A stretch of 64,000 nt of DNA from Burkholderiaceae bacterium (GCA_947455485.1 CANGNV010000003.1:26233-90232); one strand, 5' to 3'. Numbered from the stretch's first letter, positions 1 through 9,521 are shown. Numbers and translations are program-made. The notes: generated from the letters alone by a model not told the origin.

Positions 1-88
1 CAAGCATCCTAAGTACTTCAATTTCTTCGGAAGGTTCAGATTTAAGTTGACCAATTTTGACCAAATTATCTAAATTTTGATTAGTCAA
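1..88 (-). CDS. HEPN-domain-like protein, N-terminal fragment (runs off the window edge)
   Basis: Minus-strand reading from TTG at 88: MTNQNLDNLVKIGQLKSEPSEEIEVLRML..., resembling N-termini of HEPN partners of MNT nucleotidyltransferases; start overlaps the stop of the upstream NTase gene. Confidence 0.5.
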   Translation of the reverse strand, partial: MTNQNLDNLVKIGQLKSEPSEEIEVLRML

Positions 89-656
89 TTAAGGCGCCAT
101 ACACTGAGATGGTAGGTAGTTCTAACACTTTATTTACAAATGAATTTCGCTCTGCGCGACGATTCTCAAACTCTTTTGGTGTGTAGCAGGTGGGATTAAT
201 TTTTCGTCCTAACTTATGTTCAACTGGGGTGAGTAGATCCAGTATTTTACTAAGACGTAAATTCTTTCCGACTAAAAGAAGGTCAATGTCACTACTTGCT
301 GTATCGGTATTTTTGGCGACCGAACCGTAGATCAATGCGTGCTGTAAATCTTGATGCAATGGTAATAAAGCAACATTGATTTCGTGATCAATACCCAATG
401 TCTTTTTTACAAGGCTATGAAGCTCTTTATAGATAGGTGAGCTTTGATTGGCTTTGCAAATTCTTAAGTTTCCAAGCTTTGTTGAGCTAATAATCCCGCT
501 TTCCGAAAGTCGGTTTAACTCTCTCTGTAGTGATGCGCTACTTAACTTAGTCAGGCGCAATAATTCACTTAAATGAAATTCTCGTTCAGGATGGCCAAAG
601 ACCCAGCCTAAGACTAGGCTTTGGCTGGGTGAAAAAAGAGCGCTTGATAGTGACAT
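81..656 (-). CDS. HTH + nucleotidyltransferase (MNT/KNTase-like) domain protein
   Basis: N-terminal winged-HTH-like segment (FHLSELLRLTKLSSASLQRELNRL) and NTase motif GSVAKNTDTASSDIDLLLVG. Confidence 0.8.
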   Translation of the reverse strand: MSLSSALFSPSQSLVLGWVFGHPEREFHLSELLRLTKLSSASLQRELNRLSESGIISSTKLGNLRICKANQSSPIYKELHSLVKKTLGIDHEINVALLPLHQDLQHALIYGSVAKNTDTASSDIDLLLVGKNLRLSKILDLLTPVEHKLGRKINPTCYTPKEFENRRAERNSFVNKVLELPTISVYGALID

Positions 657-852
657 TACTAAATAATAGCATGATTGTGCTAAAAATTAGCAAGTAATAT
701 TCACAATAAACAACAGAAACCACGGGGCGTATGTTGAATGCGTTGGGGCGCCAAACTAGATTCCATACTTGCTGGGGATTCAGATCGGTTGGATCTGTGA
801 AGGGTGGGGATCCTCCCATCCCTGCAATACCTGTCTTAAGAAGCGACCTTAT

Positions 853-1320
853 TTATTGATCTGGCTTATGACCAGAGCATTCATTAGGCTCTAATTCCTT
901 ATCCCATAAATCATACTTAGATTGCATTACTATCCACAGCTGAGGCCCATTGCCTAAATAAGTGCCTAGCCTTAGCGCTAGTTTTGGTGTGATGCGGTAT
1001 CTCTCAGACAGAACAGCATGCAGAGTTTGCTTTGAGACTCCAAGATGCTTGGCAAATGTAGCGGCAGAAATGCCCAATGCAGGTAAAACATCCTCTCGCA
1101 GGATAGTGCCAGGGTGGGTAGGCAATCGTTTACGCATACTTTTGGAAAGTGAGTTTCTTGCGTTGATTTTTTTCAGCGCATTTCGAAAATCTTTGAGATC
1201 TTCATAGCTGTGTGCTTCTGTAAGGCCGATAGATTTCCTCTGATCTAATTCTTTTGCTATTTCCCTTGCTCTTGCAAAAAAATCGTCAACATTTCTGAGT
1301 CTGACTATTGGTTTTCGCAT
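853..1320 (-). CDS. HigA-family antitoxin-like XRE regulator with N-terminal extension
   Basis: C-terminal part RLPTHPGTILREDVLPALGISAATFAKHLGVSKQTLHAVLSERYRITPKLALRLGTYLGNGPQLW is HigA-like; ~60 aa N-terminal segment precedes it (internal Met at 1137 is an alternative start). Confidence 0.75.
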   Translation of the reverse strand: MRKPIVRLRNVDDFFARAREIAKELDQRKSIGLTEAHSYEDLKDFRNALKKINARNSLSKSMRKRLPTHPGTILREDVLPALGISAATFAKHLGVSKQTLHAVLSERYRITPKLALRLGTYLGNGPQLWIVMQSKYDLWDKELEPNECSGHKPDQ

Positions 1321-1469
1321 CTATAGCTATTTCTTAATCTCAAGGGCAGAGTTATCTATGCCTTAAATAATAAATGATTAATGTTTGTGAATTGGTGACC
1401 ACTACGAGAGTAGGTCTATGGTGGGAAATAAAATAATGTCTTAACCACTGAATGAAATTTTGAATAAAT

Positions 1470-1817
1470 ATGCTGCGCTACAAGGATGGTGGTTTAAAAA
1501 ACGTTTGGCTCAAGAACGGATTTGAGATTCGTGAGACACCTTATGGGGAGGGTGTAGCCATTCATGACATTGATGGCTTAACCAATGCGATCTGTTTGGC
1601 TTTGACTAATAAATCTAGCGCATTAACTGGCGTGGAATTCCGTTACATACGTAGCGCTGGAATTTTACTTTCCGTCTCTGAGCTTGCTACGATGATGGGG
1701 GTGAATACCCAAACGGTCACTCGGTGGGAGAAGAATGGACGATTGCCCAAGTGGGCAGATAGGCTGATCCGAGCCCTATTTATTGCCCATGTAGAAGCAG
1801 GCAAAACTACTAGCTAA
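1470..1817 (+). CDS. MqsA/YgiT-like HTH transcriptional regulator (antitoxin-like)
   Basis: ETPYGEGVAIHDIDGL and LTGVEFRYIRSAGILLSVSELATMMGVNTQTVTRWEKNGRLPKWADRLIR. Confidence 0.65.
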   Translation: MLRYKDGGLKNVWLKNGFEIRETPYGEGVAIHDIDGLTNAICLALTNKSSALTGVEFRYIRSAGILLSVSELATMMGVNTQTVTRWEKNGRLPKWADRLIRALFIAHVEAGKTTS

Positions 1818-1821
1818 AGCT

Positions 1822-2805
1822 TCAATACAAACCCAGTGCTTTGGTTAATTCCGCCTTTACCCTTGTCTTAAGACTAGCCGGCCCAATTACCTCAACGCCT
1901 GATCCATGTTTCAGGATATCCATAACCAACTCGGGATCTTGGTTGTAATCAAACTCTAGGTTGTAATAACCGTCTTTATCAAAGCTGCCCACTTGCTGGC
2001 CATGCCAATGCTCGCCTGACACCCATTTTGCATGCTCAGGAGTAAAGCGTAGCTTAGCTCTTTGTGTGGCTTTACCTGAGAAGATACCGTAGCTCTGTGC
2101 AAAGTGTTCCTGACATTCTTTTTCAGAAACTTCTTGAGCTTTCTTATTGGTAAGTACTGCACTCTGAATACCATCTACAGAAAAACTCCTCAAACCATTG
2201 CGTAAGTGGCAATACGCATCGAGGTACCAGTTCTCGCGGTAATAGATTAATCGTTGAGGAGAGATTTCACGAGCAGTGTTCTCGTCTTTACCCCTAGAGT
2301 GGTAGGTGATCTCTAGACGATTACGTTTGAGTAGGGCGGCACCAATTTCAGAGAAGTTCTCAATAGAGTTCTTACGTGAACCCATGCCGATTACTTTGAT
2401 GCGTTTACGTAACTCTTTAGCTGTTGCTTCACTTTGACCAAGGATGCCATCAATGATGGCTGTAAGTGGCTCAATATGGGGTCCAATTAAACCGCCTTGA
2501 TCGAGGGAGGAGAGTAAGTGCTGCATTAGTACTAAGGCAGTAGCCTCTTTCTCGGAGAACCAGAGGCCTGGCATCTCAATCCTCTCGATCGAGGAGGAAT
2601 TCTCAAACTTATATCCACCCATGAAGCGGTCATAAACTATGGATGCCTGCATACGGCTACGCAGATACTCTAGGTCACGCTTGAAGGTAGCGGGGGAGAT
2701 CTCTAGCTCGGATAAGAAATCCTCCCTTGGAACGCATTTGCGTTGCTGAATCATGTACTTAATCCGGTGCAGACGCTCCATATCGCTCATATCAACCCAA
2801 TCCAA
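1822..2805 (-). CDS. WYL-domain transcriptional regulator (N-terminal HTH)
   Basis: N-terminal HTH (MERLHRIKYMIQQRKCVPREDFLSELEISPATFKRDLEYLR) and WYL-type core (ISPQRLIYYRENWYLDAYCHLRNGLRSFSVDGI). Confidence 0.88.
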   Translation of the reverse strand: MDWVDMSDMERLHRIKYMIQQRKCVPREDFLSELEISPATFKRDLEYLRSRMQASIVYDRFMGGYKFENSSSIERIEMPGLWFSEKEATALVLMQHLLSSLDQGGLIGPHIEPLTAIIDGILGQSEATAKELRKRIKVIGMGSRKNSIENFSEIGAALLKRNRLEITYHSRGKDENTAREISPQRLIYYRENWYLDAYCHLRNGLRSFSVDGIQSAVLTNKKAQEVSEKECQEHFAQSYGIFSGKATQRAKLRFTPEHAKWVSGEHWHGQQVGSFDKDGYYNLEFDYNQDPELVMDILKHGSGVEVIGPASLKTRVKAELTKALGLY

Positions 2806-2897
2806 AGAAGAGAAACATTTATTGTTTTTATAACTTTAGATACTTTATAGCTCATTTATTGAGCTAGTGGCAACTATGTAGTAAATACGGCGTTAAA

Positions 2898-3209
2898 TCA
2901 GCGTTTTGAAGGCGAATAACCAATCCGATTGCCATTGTTATCAAAGACATTAGTGACACCCGAGGGTGCAGTGACTTCGTAACCCATCCGCTTGCCGCTA
3001 TTGTCATAGACCCCATTAGTGGAATTCCAGTTACTGGAGCTGTTTTGCCAATTGCTAGGACTGTTCTGCCAGTTACTTGGTGAATTATTCCAATTACTTT
3101 CAGAGTTTTTCCAATTGCTTGGCGAGTTATCCCAATTTGTTGTCTGTGTAAACGCGGGTATTGCGATACCAGAGAGCAATAATGCAATGAGTAATCTACT
3201 TGTATTCAT
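2898..3209 (-). CDS. Small secreted protein with tandem SNWxNSP heptad repeats
   Basis: Signal-peptide-like N-terminus (MNTSRLLIALLLSGIAIPAFTQ) followed by NWDNSPSNWKNSESNWNNSPSNWQNSPSNWQNSSSNW. Confidence 0.6.
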   Translation of the reverse strand: MNTSRLLIALLLSGIAIPAFTQTTNWDNSPSNWKNSESNWNNSPSNWQNSPSNWQNSSSNWNSTNGVYDNSGKRMGYEVTAPSGVTNVFDNNGNRIGYSPSKR

Positions 3210-3212
3210 CTC

Positions 3213-3527
3213 TTACCAGCCTTTCACTGAGGGTACTTGAGGAGCTTGACGAGGGGCATTGATGCTTGAGTTGGGTGCTGCATAAACGGGGGCTGTTGAA
3301 GCGCCTTGATAGTTGCCTTGCGGACTATAGAAATTGGTTTGACCGTTATCCGTCTGAAACGACTGAACGTTCTGACCAGTGGCGCTGTAGATATTGGTCA
3401 CACCGCTAGGAGAGGTTTGGCTGTAACCCACATAGTTTCCGTTGGGACCATAAATAGCCTGAGCAGAAGCGCTGCGAGCCAATATGACGCACTGAGCCAC
3501 GAGAAGAAGGGTGATTAGGTATTTCAT
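3213..3527 (-). CDS. Small secreted protein sharing a PSGVTN motif block with the downstream neighbour
   Basis: Signal peptide from MKYLITLLLVAQCVILARSASAQA (start moved from 3551 to the internal Met at 3527); GNYVGYSQTSPSGVTNIYSATG matches KRMGYEVTAPSGVTNVFDNNG in the next gene; only a 3-nt gap between the genes. Confidence 0.6.
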   Translation of the reverse strand: MKYLITLLLVAQCVILARSASAQAIYGPNGNYVGYSQTSPSGVTNIYSATGQNVQSFQTDNGQTNFYSPQGNYQGASTAPVYAAPNSSINAPRQAPQVPSVKGW

Positions 3528-3604
3528 ATTGAGCTTCTGAAGAGTATTCATAACAACAGAATAAAAACCTTAAAGCTCACCTAATGAGCTAGTAGCTCAA
3601 GAAA

Positions 3605-3928
3605 ATGAAATATCTAATAAATCAACAAAAGAGCGACATGCTGACCAGTGCCTTCGTATTCATGACAATCTTGCCGCTACAGATAAGCCCAAGTAGCAAA
3701 CCAGCCCATGTGCTTGATAGGCCTCTGATGGTGTCTGCGGTAGTCGATTGCGCTCGCATACTGGGTTTGCCCAAACTAAAACTCAGGGATAGCAATGGCA
3801 ACCGCTATCAAGCAGAAAAAATCATCATGCAAGAACCCTTTGCTATCTTGCAAGCATCATCAGATCAAATGGCTTTTAACCAAACGGGTCTCAGAAAAGC
3901 TTATATTCAATCCTATGTGCTTAGATAA
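3605..3928 (+). CDS. Hypothetical small protein, possibly secreted
   Basis: ORF only; hydrophobic N-terminal stretch MLTSAFVFMTILPLQISPSSKPA from an internal Met. Confidence 0.35.
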   Translation: MKYLINQQKSDMLTSAFVFMTILPLQISPSSKPAHVLDRPLMVSAVVDCARILGLPKLKLRDSNGNRYQAEKIIMQEPFAILQASSDQMAFNQTGLRKAYIQSYVLR

Positions 3929-3951
3929 GCAATTCGAGCTAAATTATGTAT

Positions 3952-4290
3952 TCAGGACTCATTGCCTATATTTTCTTGGGAGTTGATGATGAATTTTTTT
4001 AAGCGCTCATGGCGTCCAAGATGAATCATTTCAGCTGGAGAAGTGTCGCCTAATAAGGGGTTTCTTGCCTTGAACCAGGCGCACGCTCTCGCGATATCAC
4101 CATTGAATATTTTTACGACCATCATGATGGTGTCACTAATATCTTCCGTCTTGCAAGACTCTTGTGATATCAATTCTTGTTGAATTTGCCGGGATATAGT
4201 TCTTGCGATTGCAACGGCACTAGAGTGGTCATAAAGAGATTCCTCTTTCAAGAAGTCATCGAAACTGCTGCCATTATGTTTTTTCTTCAT
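3952..4290 (-). CDS. MbcA/ParS/Xre (DUF2384)-type antitoxin-like protein
   Basis: C-terminal FNGDIARACAWFKARNPLLGDTSPAEMIHLGRHERLKKFI resembles the DUF2384 toxin-binding domain; N-term SSFDDFLKEESLYDHSSAVAIARTISRQI resembles HigA2-type starts. Start placed at MKKKHNGSS. Confidence 0.6.
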   Translation of the reverse strand: MKKKHNGSSFDDFLKEESLYDHSSAVAIARTISRQIQQELISQESCKTEDISDTIMMVVKIFNGDIARACAWFKARNPLLGDTSPAEMIHLGRHERLKKFIINSQENIGNES

Positions 4291-4515
4291 GATGATTTTC
4301 CTAGCTCGAGATTTGTCACTTAAAAAATAAATCAATGACAAAAATTTCGTTCTACAGTTTTATCAGCTGCTTGAGATAGTTGATGTCATCTTTTACTGAA
4401 AAGCTTGTAGGAAAGCATAGATATTATGAGGGGCAAAGAAAGCCAGTTTCTATGGGTCGTCTGCTTGCACATATGGAAAAAATTAGGAAAATCTGAAATA
4501 AAGTTATCTAATTAG

Positions 4516-7500
4516 TTATGCTGATCTAATGATGGATAGTCTCCTGAATATTTCAGCCGTCATGGCTTGCTTGAGTAGCCAGGTAATTTGAATTGGACGC
4601 TCCCCTTCATAAGCTTGTAAGATCGCCTCTCCAAGCGCAAGAAAGGCTGATTCATTGTTTTCTCGTACAAATAAGAAAAATTTCCAACCATTTCCACTAG
4701 CGCTCTCAATGTATCTTCGACCAGTTTTATTGCTTAAGCTTGCTTTATTTTGAGTTTGCCAATGGAATAGAGATGGGCTGATTGCATAATCGTGATACTG
4801 CACCGATTCGTTAAAGCCCTTACTTTTATCGAGAGTCACAAACATTAATTCAGTTTTGATGCCGTCTAAAGTGAGGCAGCCTTCTCGAAAGTCGGGCCTC
4901 TTAAGTGCATCTCGAAAGCCAACTGCTGTCAATATATCGGACCTTGTATACCGACAGTGGAGAGAGATTGGCCAACTGGCTGGCGCATTTTCTAATGAAA
5001 TATAGGATTTATCTGACTGATTTAGTTGCCAGTCAATTAACTCAATCAATTCATCCTTAGCGTAAGGTTGATTTATTAACTTTGTTATGAATTGGTCTGG
5101 ACTGATCGTGCCCGAAGTTATTAACTGATAGGCAAGCATTTGAGTGCGAACTAAATCGATGGGCTTGCCACTTAACGCTTCCCGCCAACAGGTTAGCAAT
5201 TCCCTGTCATCCACATAAAGGAGGCTACCAAAACGCTTGGATAATTTATCGTCTACAACGTCTATGGGATGAGAAATAAGATTACACCTTAGCTTATATT
5301 CGTTCCAGTAATGCTTGCCGTTATAAATATCACTTACTTCAATCTGATTTTCGATTAAAAAATTATTTAGAGTAATTTGTTCTCTTGACTTAGTTGATGC
5401 CCACGCAGCGAGTTCTGATGTTAGACGAAGTGAATTAAGTTTAAGAGACTTCTTAAGGCTATCAAGTACCCGTTCACGCGCCACTTTGTCAAATTGGATA
5501 TAGCATCCGGGTGGTAAGAAGCTAAATCCAGACTCAACGGCTTCCTTGATTCTTAATCTCGTTTGACCAGTGAGAGACCTAAAAAGAATATCAAATCTAA
5601 ATTCCTCCGAATAGTTGCCAATAAAATCCAATACAAGGCAGCAATCTTTCCCTATAGATAATCTGAGGCCTCTGCCAATTTGTTGTTGAAATAAGATCGG
5701 ACTCTGGGTTGGCCTAAGTAGAAGTAAGGTATTAATTTCTGGGATATCAACACCTTCATTAAATAGATCGCAGGTAAAAATCACCTTAATATTGCCAGAG
5801 GATAATTCCTTGATTGCAATATTTCGCTCGAGCTCAGATTGGGCTCCAGTCAGAGATCTTGCAGGTATATTTCTTTTATTAAAAAAATCAGCCATGAATT
5901 CAGCATGCTTTACGCTCACGCAAAACCCAATTGACTTCAAATCATCTAGGCTTGATGAGTACCTCTCAACAGCTTGATATACCGAGCGCGCTCGCACGTT
6001 GTTGGAAGATATGATGGCATCAAGTTGATTTTCAATATTTGACTTACGCCAGTCAATTGATGTTAGGTCAATATCATCATGTGTTGCATAGTATTCAAAT
6101 GGGGCAAGCAACTGCTGATCTAATGCATCCCATAGGCGGAGAGAAACTGACGGAGATCCATCAGGTCTCAAGTCAAAATATTTTCCTAGCGACATCCCAT
6201 CTGTTCTTTCGGGGGTAGCTGTCAACCCTAATAATATTTTTGGTTTAATTGATGTGGCAAATTTATCGAAAGATTGCGCTGGTAAATGATGCGCTTCATC
6301 AATAATTACCATCAGCCAGTAATCATTGCCGAGCTTATCAATTAGATTTCTGGTGTTGATAGTATTAATAGTTGCAAACAGATGTTCATATTGGGTTGGC
6401 TCATTATTACCGTCCATCAATTCACCGAAGCTCGAGTCCCGAAGTACTTGTCTAAAAGTATAAATAGCCTGCTTAAGTATTTGAACGCGATGAGCTACGA
6501 ATAGTAATTTTGGTTGCCCACCTTCCTGCCTGCATACTCTTTCGTAATCAAATGCTGCAACAACTGTCTTTCCAGTACCAGTTGCTGCAACAACTAAATT
6601 CTTTTTTCTATTTTGATCTCGCTCGGACTGGAGTCTATCTAACATCCCTTGTTGATAAAACTTAGGCCTTAATTCAAACCACGTTTGATTGGCAATAATT
6701 TCTGATGGACTAGATTTGGTAGTGAGATATTTTTGCTCATGCAGGGCCCTGTTCAGGGCTTCTCGATGACTTTCGTTATATGGGTCATAAGTCTGAAATT
6801 CAGCGTCATTCCATAAAGTCTCAAAATGTGCCTCCGCATTTTGATAGACTTGCCCGCTAGTTTTTTGTGCAATTTTAATTGTCCATTCAATTCCACTTAC
6901 TAATGCTGACTCGGATAAATTAGCGCTACCTATATAGGCAGTTCCAAAGCCAGTATCCCTTTTAAAAATCCAGGCCTTTGCGTGTAAGCGCGTTCTTCTT
7001 CCATCTAGTGAAATTTTCAATTCAACATTAGGAAGTTCGGCTAAGGAATTGACAGCCCTTGCATCAGTTGCGCCAATATATGTTGTAGTGATAAATCTAA
7101 ATTTAGTCTTTGATTTGCCTTGGGCATTAACTGACGTAATGCTCTTTAGTACATCGTAAATTTTTCTGACACCACTCCAGGTAATAAAGCTAACTAATAT
7201 GTCTACGGAATCAACGGCCTGTAGCTCGCTAATAAGCTCAGAAAGAAGTGCGGGCTCAGATTTTGATGAGCTAAATAGCCATGAGCTTCTTAGTCCTGTA
7301 ATTGGGAAAATTCCCGGTAAATTTGGTTCATGTATGGACTTTAGTAATTGCGGCGGAGTGGCTAGTAGTTCTGTGTCTTGATCTGCCTTAGCAAGCAATC
7401 TGGCTTGTTTTAATATTTCAGAAATTAGCTTAAGTTCAATTTTTGCCTTTTCGTCACTTCCATCCTTGTTTATTGATATCTGGTCTAGCAATTCAGGAAT

Positions 7501-7653
7501 TCTAGAAACTAATTCTGAAATGAGATAGCTGCGACTATTTTCTGCTGAAGGCAATTCAATGCTTGCTCGACCTTCTCGCTCCAATTCGTCAAGCTCCGGC
7601 AACTCACTTTCATAAATTAATCTATCGTATAGGCCATGCTTAAATTTTGACAT
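4516..7653 (-). CDS. PLD-nuclease / DEAD-DEAH helicase / DUF3427 protein
   Basis: PLD motif HAKAWIFKRD...GSANLS; Walker A AATGTGKT; DEAH (VIIDEAHHLPAQ); TATPERTDG; motif VI QQIGRGLRL; C-terminal DUF3427-like YHDYAISPSLFHWQTQNKASLSNKTGRRYI...FFLFVRE. Confidence 0.9.
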   Translation of the reverse strand: MSKFKHGLYDRLIYESELPELDELEREGRASIELPSAENSRSYLISELVSRIPELLDQISINKDGSDEKAKIELKLISEILKQARLLAKADQDTELLATPPQLLKSIHEPNLPGIFPITGLRSSWLFSSSKSEPALLSELISELQAVDSVDILVSFITWSGVRKIYDVLKSITSVNAQGKSKTKFRFITTTYIGATDARAVNSLAELPNVELKISLDGRRTRLHAKAWIFKRDTGFGTAYIGSANLSESALVSGIEWTIKIAQKTSGQVYQNAEAHFETLWNDAEFQTYDPYNESHREALNRALHEQKYLTTKSSPSEIIANQTWFELRPKFYQQGMLDRLQSERDQNRKKNLVVAATGTGKTVVAAFDYERVCRQEGGQPKLLFVAHRVQILKQAIYTFRQVLRDSSFGELMDGNNEPTQYEHLFATINTINTRNLIDKLGNDYWLMVIIDEAHHLPAQSFDKFATSIKPKILLGLTATPERTDGMSLGKYFDLRPDGSPSVSLRLWDALDQQLLAPFEYYATHDDIDLTSIDWRKSNIENQLDAIISSNNVRARSVYQAVERYSSSLDDLKSIGFCVSVKHAEFMADFFNKRNIPARSLTGAQSELERNIAIKELSSGNIKVIFTCDLFNEGVDIPEINTLLLLRPTQSPILFQQQIGRGLRLSIGKDCCLVLDFIGNYSEEFRFDILFRSLTGQTRLRIKEAVESGFSFLPPGCYIQFDKVARERVLDSLKKSLKLNSLRLTSELAAWASTKSREQITLNNFLIENQIEVSDIYNGKHYWNEYKLRCNLISHPIDVVDDKLSKRFGSLLYVDDRELLTCWREALSGKPIDLVRTQMLAYQLITSGTISPDQFITKLINQPYAKDELIELIDWQLNQSDKSYISLENAPASWPISLHCRYTRSDILTAVGFRDALKRPDFREGCLTLDGIKTELMFVTLDKSKGFNESVQYHDYAISPSLFHWQTQNKASLSNKTGRRYIESASGNGWKFFLFVRENNESAFLALGEAILQAYEGERPIQITWLLKQAMTAEIFRRLSIIRSA

Positions 7654-8714
7654 TACACGCTTTCTACGATCTCAACTTGGCCTGACCTAAGTTGTGCCAT
7701 ATTGGAATATTCTCCTGGCTTTATCCAGCCTGATCCGCCACCCTTGTTGGCGGCCTCATACCCCCACTTTGCGATTGCCATTGTGGTTTCAAGGTTAGCA
7801 CTAATCCCAACCTCATTTCCTATCTTCACAATTTCATCAGAGTTTTTGGCAATTAACTCAACCCATTTATTCAAATGAATATTTGCTGCCAAGGTATCTG
7901 ATTTACTTCTATTGCATGTTGGACATGCTAAGACAAAGTTATGCATCAAATCTCTTGGGTAAAGCGAGAATGGGACGAAATGGTCCACCTCCAACTTGGA
8001 AGAGGTTTTGTTGCAATAAAAACATTTGTTTCCATAGATTTCTTTAAGCCCCTTGCATACAAGCGCAAGAGTCTTTCTTGAGGTTTCAAACAAGAAGCTA
8101 TTGAGGTCATCTTTTTTCCCAAGAATGGGGGCGTTATTGGTATTTCTCTTAATGAAGTCAGTCCATCGGTTTCTAGCTAGTTGCTGAATTAAAGGCTGAA
8201 ACCGCCTTAAGCAGTAAGCCACTCCATTTTTAAGTGTGATGGAGCTTGAATTGCGCTCATAGAGGAATGGAAGGGTTGCTCCACCAACATTCTGTAGGTA
8301 ATTGATTGGTTGCTTTGCAACTGTTGCAGCAACTGCAGCAACCAGCCGTTCATATTCCTTTGAGCCCTTGGCCGATGAGGGTGAATTGAAGCGGTTGCCC
8401 TGTCTAAACGCATCAATAGACTTCACAATTGCAGCTTGAACCCCATTATTTTGGAAGAGAACGCCACTTTCATTTGCCTTAGATGTTTTATAGGGGCTCG
8501 ATTGTTGCCAGTACAGCTCTATGAATCTTTCTGCAATTGTTTTGTTGCTAATCTCCAGTCGTGAGCTATCGTCTTTTCCATGTTCAATTGCTAAATCAGC
8601 CAAGGAAATAAGCAAGGCGTACTTATAGGTAGAGCTGAAGTCGCTCTCATTGAATAGTCGTTGAATCTTTGTAAGGAAGTCGAGTTGATCTTCTGCTGAT
8701 GGGGTAGCAATCAT
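7653..8714 (-). CDS. HNH endonuclease
   Basis: CFYCNKTSSKLEVDHFVPFSLYPRDLMHNFVLACPTCNRSKSD is a canonical HNH with CxxC pairs. Start set to ATG 8714 (ATGA overlap with HIT stop) rather than 8747. Confidence 0.88.
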   Translation of the reverse strand: MIATPSAEDQLDFLTKIQRLFNESDFSSTYKYALLISLADLAIEHGKDDSSRLEISNKTIAERFIELYWQQSSPYKTSKANESGVLFQNNGVQAAIVKSIDAFRQGNRFNSPSSAKGSKEYERLVAAVAATVAKQPINYLQNVGGATLPFLYERNSSSITLKNGVAYCLRRFQPLIQQLARNRWTDFIKRNTNNAPILGKKDDLNSFLFETSRKTLALVCKGLKEIYGNKCFYCNKTSSKLEVDHFVPFSLYPRDLMHNFVLACPTCNRSKSDTLAANIHLNKWVELIAKNSDEIVKIGNEVGISANLETTMAIAKWGYEAANKGGGSGWIKPGEYSNMAQLRSGQVEIVESV

Positions 8715-9091
8715 TCCCAATACTTCGCTTTCTCGGGAATAATCCATCTCACGCCACCCCTAGGATCATCTTGATCATCCTTATATCTGGGGATGAGGTG
8801 CATATGTAGATGAGGGACAGTTTGTCCGGCTACAGGCCCATCATTAATTCCTATGTTGTATCCATCTGGATTGAGTTCATGTTGTAGGACTGTTTTAGCT
8901 CTTGCTAGAAGATCTAGAAGCGCAAGCTGTTCATCGCTTGTGATTTCAAACCAAGACCCAATATGTCGCTTCGGTATCACCAGAGTGTGGCCAGGTGAAA
9001 CAGGATAGCCATCCCGAATCGTCACGCCAAATTCATTCGAGTCAATGATTCGCTCGGCTGGCAGAGTACAGAAGGGGCATGGCTTACTCAT
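8711..9091 (-). CDS. HIT-family hydrolase
   Basis: Histidine triad HLHMHLIPRY; N-term CPFCTLPAERII. Confidence 0.92.
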   Translation of the reverse strand: MSKPCPFCTLPAERIIDSNEFGVTIRDGYPVSPGHTLVIPKRHIGSWFEITSDEQLALLDLLARAKTVLQHELNPDGYNIGINDGPVAGQTVPHLHMHLIPRYKDDQDDPRGGVRWIIPEKAKYWE

Positions 9092-9425
9092 GAAATAGAT
9101 CTATTGATATTGGTATTTATGTTGTTTCATACTATTACATAACAAGACTGGCTCATATTCTGACCTTTAACCCATCCATTTCCTACATCCAAATCATCCC
9201 TAATGCCTGTCATTTGGTCTTGCCAACCTCTACGCTAAATCTTTCAGACTACGGCGGAGATTTGGATGCGACTTTCAATTGAGTGTTCTCACAAGCATTT
9301 AAAGCTATTCCGAATCTCTTTGGATTCAAGGGTCATGCTGGTTTTGCTGATTATTTGGATGATTTGGGGGATCTTCAGGGTCTTAAAGATCCTGTAATTG
9401 AGCTAAATCTAGCTTGGGGGAGGTG

Positions 9426-9521
9426 GACGAGCCCGACCCCCGGCACTGACAGAATTGGGTTTGGCTGCTTCGTTCCCGACCTGACCAGGTTATCCAAACC
9501 GCCATGCGGGGAGGCCCGTCC
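9426..9521 (-). ncRNA. ffs: Signal recognition particle RNA (4.5S, small bacterial type)
   Basis: Minus strand GGACGGGCCTCCCCGCATGGCGGTTTGGATAACCTGGTCAGGTCGGGAACGAAGCAGCC...GTGCCGGGGGTCGGGCTCGTCC; contains the conserved GGTCAGG...GGAA..AGCAGCC core and pairing ends. Confidence 0.88.

What the first reader, a model, noticed from the sequence alone, without database searches (positions are those of the whole stretch)
4516..9091. Tightly coupled HIT / HNH / PLD-helicase-DUF3427 operon: candidate defence system
Seen: three minus-strand genes with a 4-nt ATGA overlap (8711-8714) and a TAATG overlap (7653), encoding a HIT hydrolase (HLHMH), an HNH nuclease (CFYC...DHFVPF...CPTCNRSK) and a 1045-aa protein joining a PLD nuclease motif, a DEAH helicase and a C-terminal DUF3427-like region. 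Established: PLD, HNH and SF2 helicase modules are common anti-phage effectors, and HIT proteins hydrolyse or transfer nucleotide adducts. Inference: the coupling and accessory setting suggest one system in which two nucleases and a nucleotide hydrolase act together. I cannot match this trio to a named system from memory.
Basis: partly seen in the sequence, partly recalled or inferred. Interest (0 to 1): 0.8.

Follow-up and report, generated by a model that had tools for sequence, protein, structure and literature searches.

The report
HIT–HNH module joined to SauUSI-like nuclease
Three overlapping bacterial genes form one operon made of a known kind of enzyme that cuts chemically modified foreign DNA (SauUSI-type) plus a little-described, widely reused pair of genes (a HIT nucleotide hydrolase and an HNH DNA-cutter), hinting that DNA-cutting defence enzymes travel with interchangeable helper enzymes.

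Summary
In detail: three tightly overlapping minus-strand genes, HIT (8711-9091), HNH (7653-8714) and a 1045-aa PLD/SF2/DUF3427 protein (4516-7653). The reading 'one unnamed three-part system' is only partly right. The big protein is a full-length relative of SauUSI, a Type IV (5mC/5hmC-dependent) restriction enzyme: PADLOC model mREase_IV 638 bits, SauUSI structure 7clg, and an SRA-like C-terminal domain by profile and fold. Close relatives elsewhere in Burkholderiales stand alone; the operonic trio was seen in only one other genome. The recurring unit is HIT-HNH: this HNH family directly follows either a HIT gene (18 loci, Betaproteobacteria and Planctomycetota; 16 with an NTGA overlap at the HIT stop) or a small TehB-like methyltransferase (14 loci, Gammaproteobacteria; once fused). 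The pair sits beside varied defence genes (SauUSI-like, SIR2-NACHT, Hhe, BREX, CRISPR I-Fv, McrBC, Type I RM) or alone. The same HIT subfamily also overlaps an unrelated phosphorothioate-dependent HNH restriction enzyme in 3 genomes; in one genus the HIT stayed while the nuclease changed. Best reading: a compound restriction operon, SauUSI-like enzyme plus HIT-HNH nuclease module, with HIT as a nucleotide-processing companion (function inferred). New variant of a known kind.

The parts
8711..9091 (-). HIT-family protein (126 aa, HxHxH motif HLHMHLIP intact); companion gene of the HNH
   Evidence: Pfam HIT 83 bits; alignment and tree of 34 HIT proteins
7653..8714 (-). HNH endonuclease with ~200-aa N-terminal helical domain of unknown fold; member of a family whose core members are always found 3' of HIT or a small MTase
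4516..7653 (-). SauUSI-like Type IV restriction enzyme: PLD nuclease (~120-300), SF2 ATPase (~325-690), coupler + SRA-like target recognition domain / DUF3427 (~700-1040)
8711..8714 (-). ATGA stop/start overlap HIT-HNH (translational coupling)
   Evidence: NTGA at the same place in 16 of 18 adjacent HIT-HNH pairs
7651..7655 (-). TAATG stop/start overlap HNH-helicase
   Evidence: conserved in L012
1822..2805 (-). WYL-domain regulator at the far edge of the island; possible but unproven regulator
   Evidence: WYL genes also adjoin HIT-HNH or HNH in L025, L033, L035, L039, L041

Best explanation
The operon is a compound restriction cassette made of two modules transcribed together. Module 1 is a two-gene HIT-HNH nuclease unit; module 2 is a SauUSI-family Type IV restriction enzyme that uses an SRA-like C-terminal domain to read modified cytosine in foreign DNA, an SF2 motor to translocate and a dimeric PLD nuclease to cut. 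The HNH protein is a second DNA endonuclease with its own, uncharacterised N-terminal recognition or regulatory domain. The HIT protein is a companion hydrolase acting on nucleotides or nucleotidyl adducts linked to the nuclease's activity; it is exchangeable with a TehB-like methyltransferase and serves unrelated nucleases, so it is unlikely to be a nuclease-specific part. Shown: gene content, coupling, family membership, recurrence and partner exchange. Inferred: that the operon restricts phage or plasmid DNA, what the HNH recognises, and what HIT hydrolyses.
For: SauUSI family: PADLOC PDLC03659 638 bits over residues 114-1040; 7clg E 1.2e-83; catalytic motifs (LHAK...GSAN, GTGKT, DEAH, QQIGRGLR) present and largely conserved in relatives; C-terminal profile hits 7clg 597-918 E 9.5e-14; AF2 model best match 7clg, then SRA proteins including AbaSI, AspBHI, LpnPI. 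Host genome shows no C5-cytosine methyltransferase gene, as expected if 5mC marks foreign DNA. HIT-HNH: adjacency in 18 loci and MTase-HNH in 14, NTGA junction 16/18, HIT/HNH distance correlation r 0.62, Mantel p 2e-4, MTase-HNH fusion L020. Third gene varies. Independence of helicase: L089-L094. HIT with PT-dependent HNH: L075, L095, L183.
Against: No activity data. The TRD model has modest confidence (pLDDT 72, pTM 0.51) and 5mC specificity was not tested. HIT genes close to this subfamily also occur away from nucleases (L076-L079, e.g. next to metG), so HIT may be an ordinary housekeeping enzyme carried along. Distant HNH members (L028, L029, L031) have neither companion. The trio coupling conserved in L012 could mean real cooperation between modules.
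Confidence: 0.6

Rival explanations
1. Single three-protein system: HIT, HNH and the SauUSI-like protein form one machine, the helicase delivering DNA to HNH and HIT processing products or a signal.
For: Stop/start overlaps on both junctions, both conserved in L012; an MTase-type HNH and a SauUSI-like gene are neighbours again in Pseudoalteromonas L065 and about 6 kb apart in L070.
Against: Close SauUSI-like relatives lack HIT/HNH; most HIT-HNH pairs lack a SauUSI-like gene; SauUSI itself is active as a single polypeptide (PMC3874153, PMC7913695); in L065 the two genes are convergent.
Confidence: 0.15
2. HIT (or MTase) is an antitoxin or safety switch and HNH a self-toxic DNase, i.e. a toxin-antitoxin-like pair riding beside defence systems.
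For: Companion gene comes first and usually overlaps the nuclease gene; two unrelated companions for one nuclease family; pair also found alone among housekeeping genes (L074). PADLOC authors proposed an off-switch role for HIT protein ThsC in Thoeris (PMC8565338).
Against: The same HIT subfamily precedes an unrelated PT-dependent HNH enzyme, which a specific inhibitor would hardly suit; HxHxH motif kept in all, pointing to catalysis; MTase-HNH fusion (L020) is unusual for an antitoxin.
Confidence: 0.15
3. A sharper form of the best explanation: HIT and MTase are nucleotide house-cleaning companions of modification-dependent nucleases; they destroy or detoxify modified nucleotides released from degraded foreign DNA (for example deoxynucleoside phosphorothioates).
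For: HIT couples to a PT-DNA restriction HNH in 3 of 5 genomes with a bona fide PT-HNH; HINT1, a HIT enzyme, converts dGMPS to dGMP + H2S (PMC8775712); NUDIX genes directly follow SauUSI-like genes in L099 and L101, as reported for Streptococcus SauUSI homologues (PMC7641849); TehB-like MTase also directly precedes a PLD-SF2 helicase in L066.
Against: What the window's HNH recognises is unknown; its N-terminal domain does not significantly match the PT-reading wHTH domain (hhalign probability 0.6%); dGMPS is a slow HINT1 substrate; TehB-like MTase substrate unknown.
Confidence: 0.2
4. HIT is a housekeeping gene carried along, and the HNH a mobile-island nuclease; adjacency reflects a recombination hot spot rather than function.
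For: The locus beside dnaX is variable within the genus; some HNH loci lie near large integrases on plasmids; HIT subfamily has stand-alone members.
Against: NTGA overlaps kept over deep divergence including Planctomycetota, and correlated HIT/HNH distances.
Confidence: 0.05

Closest known systems
SauUSI (Staphylococcus aureus Type IV restriction enzyme; PDB 7clg)
   Same: PLD nuclease - SF2 ATPase - coupler - SRA-like TRD order, alignable along nearly the whole length
   Different: about 1045 aa with a ~100-residue N-terminal extension and distant in sequence; encoded in an operon behind HIT and HNH; specificity unknown
PADLOC mREase_IV model PDLC03659
   Same: 638 bits over 927 of 945 model positions: the window protein belongs to this modelled subgroup
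   Different: model describes the single enzyme only, not the HIT-HNH companions
PT-DNA-dependent HNH restriction enzymes (ScoMcrA/SBD-HNH type; NCBIfam NF045808)
   Same: HNH nuclease preceded by the same HIT subfamily with an overlapping junction (L075, L095, L183)
   Different: unrelated HNH family; window HNH does not match NF045808 and its N-terminal domain shows no significant similarity
Septu PtuB / retron HNH, IscB and Cas9 HNH domains
   Same: HNH nuclease domain (46 bits best; Foldseek HNH-only matches)
   Different: similarity limited to the HNH core; no PtuA ATPase, RuvC or RNA partner
Thoeris type II ThsC (HIT protein; PMC8565338)
   Same: a HIT protein as accessory of a defence locus
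   Different: 43 bits only; no ThsA/ThsB genes here
SauUSI homologues with adjacent MutT/NUDIX (Streptococcus; PMC7641849)
   Same: SauUSI-like gene with a small nucleotide hydrolase next door; seen again in L099, L101
   Different: hydrolase is NUDIX, not HIT, and no HNH

Membership tests
SauUSI-type Type IV restriction enzyme | PLD nuclease domain with HxK motif | tested here: met
   LHAK ... IGSANLS at about 223-250, conserved in relatives; dimerisation itself not tested
SauUSI-type Type IV restriction enzyme | SF2 helicase-like ATPase motifs I, II, III, VI | tested here: met
   GTGKT, DEAH, TATP, QQIGRGLR; ResIII and Helicase_C above cut-off
SauUSI-type Type IV restriction enzyme | coupler and SRA-fold target recognition domain (DUF3427) | tested here: met
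   profile A4 vs 7clg 597-918 E 9.5e-14; DUF3427 in 7/7; Foldseek 7clg E 1.8e-8 then SRA proteins; model confidence moderate
SauUSI-type Type IV restriction enzyme | ATP-dependent cleavage only of 5mC/5hmC DNA | not testable with these tools
   only indirect: no C5-MTase (PF00145) found in the 85%-complete host genome
HIT superfamily | HIT domain with HxHxHxx motif | tested here: met
   Pfam HIT 83 bits; HLHMHLI
NF045808 PT-DNA restriction HNH | match above the curated cut-off; PT-binding N-terminal domain | tested here: not met
   no NF045808 match; hhalign prob 0.6%
Septu (PtuAB) | PtuB match plus adjacent PtuA ATPase | tested here: not met
   46 bits over the HNH region only; no ATPase neighbour
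IscB/Cas9 | above-cut-off match, RuvC domain, guide RNA | tested here: not met
   32.6 of 175 bits for IscB; no RuvC domain found
Thoeris type II | ThsA and ThsB beside the HIT gene | tested here: not met
   neighbours are HNH and SauUSI-like; ThsC 43 bits
   operonic trio only in window and L012; helicase relatives L089-L094 alone; HIT-HNH elsewhere with other partners

The most novel reading that the evidence does not exclude
Stand-alone restriction nucleases in bacteria are commonly paired with interchangeable small-molecule enzymes (HIT, TehB-like methyltransferase, NUDIX) that deal with modified or sulfur-containing nucleotides produced when modified invader DNA is shredded; HIT-HNH and MTase-HNH are undescribed two-gene defence systems of this kind, and the window shows one joined to a SauUSI-like enzyme.
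Probability: 0.25. Interest if true: 0.75.

Novelty: new variant of a known kind. Interest (0 to 1): 0.5.

Why it matters
If the companion idea holds, it would explain why HIT, MutT and small methyltransferase genes keep turning up beside restriction nucleases, and would point to a neglected step in immunity: handling the modified nucleotides left after foreign DNA is degraded. It also identifies a compact HNH family, not modelled as such in PADLOC v2, found next to at least seven different defence systems, that can be tested directly as a two-gene phage-defence unit.

Tried and rejected
Trio as a named system: PADLOC, Pfam and NCBIfam name only the SauUSI-like part. HNH as PtuB, IscB/Cas9, McrA or PT-restriction enzyme: only HNH-core similarity. 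HNH N-terminal domain as the PT-reading wHTH domain of SBD-HNH enzymes: hhalign puts 'YKFALLIALADL' against 'HKPLLLLAL' in register but without support, so not claimed. Phage records: no HNH match; viral contigs: only 3 full-length relatives. HNH fold search in viral structures: HNH core only. Literature searches for HIT with HNH or Type IV enzymes found nothing on this pairing, within an open-access library only. Synteny of L030 and L075 (same genus, possible nuclease exchange at one site) is suggestive but rests on two flank matches and a broken HNH, so it is only a lead.

Full report
OBSERVATION. HIT ends and HNH begins in an ATGA at 8711-8714; the HNH ORF has an earlier in-frame ATG at 8747 but homologues start at 8714. 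HNH ends and the large gene begins in a TAATG at 7653. Pfam finds HIT, HNH, and PLDc_2 + ResIII + Helicase_C + DUF3427, all above cut-offs. The only other genome with the same order, contig L012 (uncultured betaproteobacterium), keeps both overlaps.

THE LARGE PROTEIN IS NOT UNKNOWN. PADLOC's mREase_IV model PDLC03659 matches residues 114-1040 with 638 bits, and the related model PDLC03658 with 283 bits. The SauUSI crystal structure 7clg is the best PDB relative (E 1.2e-83 over 126-791). Catalytic motifs are intact and largely conserved in relatives. The C-terminal third, which single-sequence search could not align, matches 7clg 597-918 as a profile (E 9.5e-14), and its AlphaFold model, of moderate confidence, finds 7clg first and then SRA-domain proteins including the restriction enzymes AbaSI, AspBHI and LpnPI. 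SauUSI is known to recognise 5mC/5hmC through its SRA domain, translocate and shred DNA (PMC7913695; PMC3874153). The host genome shows no C5-cytosine methyltransferase (PF00145; assembly 85% complete), which fits. Hence 'works like and is a family member of SauUSI' is well supported; 5mC specificity is inferred.

IT IS NOT TIED TO HIT-HNH. In 200 Burkholderiales genomes 16 have a relative at E <= 1e-60; the six closest examined (L089-L094) have no HIT or HNH beside them. G096 has both a HIT-HNH pair and a SauUSI-like gene, on different contigs.

THE RECURRENT UNIT IS COMPANION + HNH. The HNH family is rare: 11 of 399 Burkholderiales genomes, and 2 of 369 and 3 of 299 in wider samples, counting the window's own genome. 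In 39 non-redundant loci the gene directly 5' on the same strand is a HIT gene in 18 (Betaproteobacteria, two Planctomycetota) and a ~195-aa TehB-like class I methyltransferase in 14 (Gammaproteobacteria; in L035, L039 and L043 the methyltransferase is broken, in L020 it is fused to the HNH). In L027, L041 and L065 the companion lies further upstream, with other genes between. Four members have none; three of these are distant (L028, L029, L031) and one is a fragment (L030). An NTGA overlap marks the HIT stop in 16 of the 18 adjacent HIT pairs, and HIT and HNH distances correlate (r 0.62, Mantel p 2e-4). What follows or precedes the pair varies: SauUSI-like (window, L012), SIR2-NACHT (L013), Hhe (L072, PADLOC 1423 bits), WYL + BREX (L033, L035), CRISPR I-Fv (L036), McrBC + RM (L039), Type I RM (L073), SNF2-GmrSD_C plus Type III Res (L043), or only housekeeping genes (L074). 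So HIT-HNH is a module that joins many defence loci and can stand alone.

PARTNER EXCHANGE. The window's HIT subfamily also overlaps an unrelated nuclease gene: L075 matches the phosphorothioate-DNA restriction enzyme model NF045808 above cut-off, and the same arrangement appears in L095 and L183; that is 3 of the 5 genomes found with a bona fide NF045808 protein. Five plasmid-borne NF045808 genes examined have no HIT beside them. In one genus the HITs of L023 (window-type HNH) and L075 (PT-type HNH) are sisters with full support, 82% identical in DNA, and the match stops at the HIT stop codon: the nuclease behind one HIT has been exchanged. Likewise the Pseudoalteromonas methyltransferase precedes either the HNH (L071) or, at 82% protein identity, a PLD-SF2 helicase (L066). 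SauUSI-like genes in two viral contigs are followed by NUDIX genes (L099, L101), as noted for Streptococcus (PMC7641849).

HOW IT PROBABLY WORKS. Shown: composition, coupling, recurrence, exchange, intact motifs. Inferred: the SauUSI-like enzyme restricts 5mC/5hmC DNA; HNH is a second endonuclease whose ~200-aa helical N-terminal domain (AF2 pLDDT 89.6, no PDB match beyond the HNH core) senses an unknown feature or regulates cutting; HIT processes nucleotides. A concrete but weakly supported idea is sanitation of modified mononucleotides: HINT1 converts dGMPS to dGMP and H2S (PMC8775712), suiting HIT beside PT-dependent nucleases. An antitoxin or off-switch role for HIT is the main rival.

SETTING. 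The island lies next to dnaX in a site that differs between species of the genus; one relative (G343/L189) carries the same WYL regulator (86% identity) and an Xre-type gene but other cargo there. GC is lower than the flanks. No tRNA adjoins it.

VERDICT. A real operon, over-interpreted as one new system. Known Type IV enzyme plus an apparently undescribed, widely reused HIT-HNH module: new variant of a known kind, interest 0.5.

Noticed in passing
window 81-656 (-): wHTH-nucleotidyltransferase protein matching PADLOC candidate PDC-M05A (239 bits), near an HTH protein (853-1320): possible separate candidate defence or toxin-antitoxin pair.
   Followed up: partly
window 3952-4341 (-): Xre/MbcA/ParS-like antitoxin C-terminal domain (weak Pfam match) with no RES toxin gene seen beside it; a similar protein lies at the same site in L189.
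   Followed up: partly
window 2864-3551 (-): Short secreted-looking proteins with Asn/Trp/Ser-rich repeats (NWDNSPSNWKNS...), function unknown.
   Followed up: no
L075, L095, L183: HIT gene overlapping a phosphorothioate-DNA restriction HNH (NF045808): apparently undescribed companion.
   Followed up: partly
L066:18082-21636: TehB-like methyltransferase directly before a PLD-SF2 helicase whose C-terminus is a Peptidase_S24-like domain instead of DUF3427.
   Followed up: partly
L025:5314-7167: Apparent fusion of a WYL regulator with a SIR2-type domain directly upstream of HIT-HNH.
   Followed up: no
L043:5858-9073: SNF2 helicase fused to GmrSD_C nuclease domain, followed by a Type III Res protein, behind the HNH.
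   Followed up: no
L041, L065, L027: Other genes lie between the companion (MTase or HIT) and the HNH, as if cargo had been inserted into the pair.
   Followed up: no
window 1-9500 and L186-L191: The region 5' of dnaX is variable between species of the genus; a candidate defence hot spot.
   Followed up: partly
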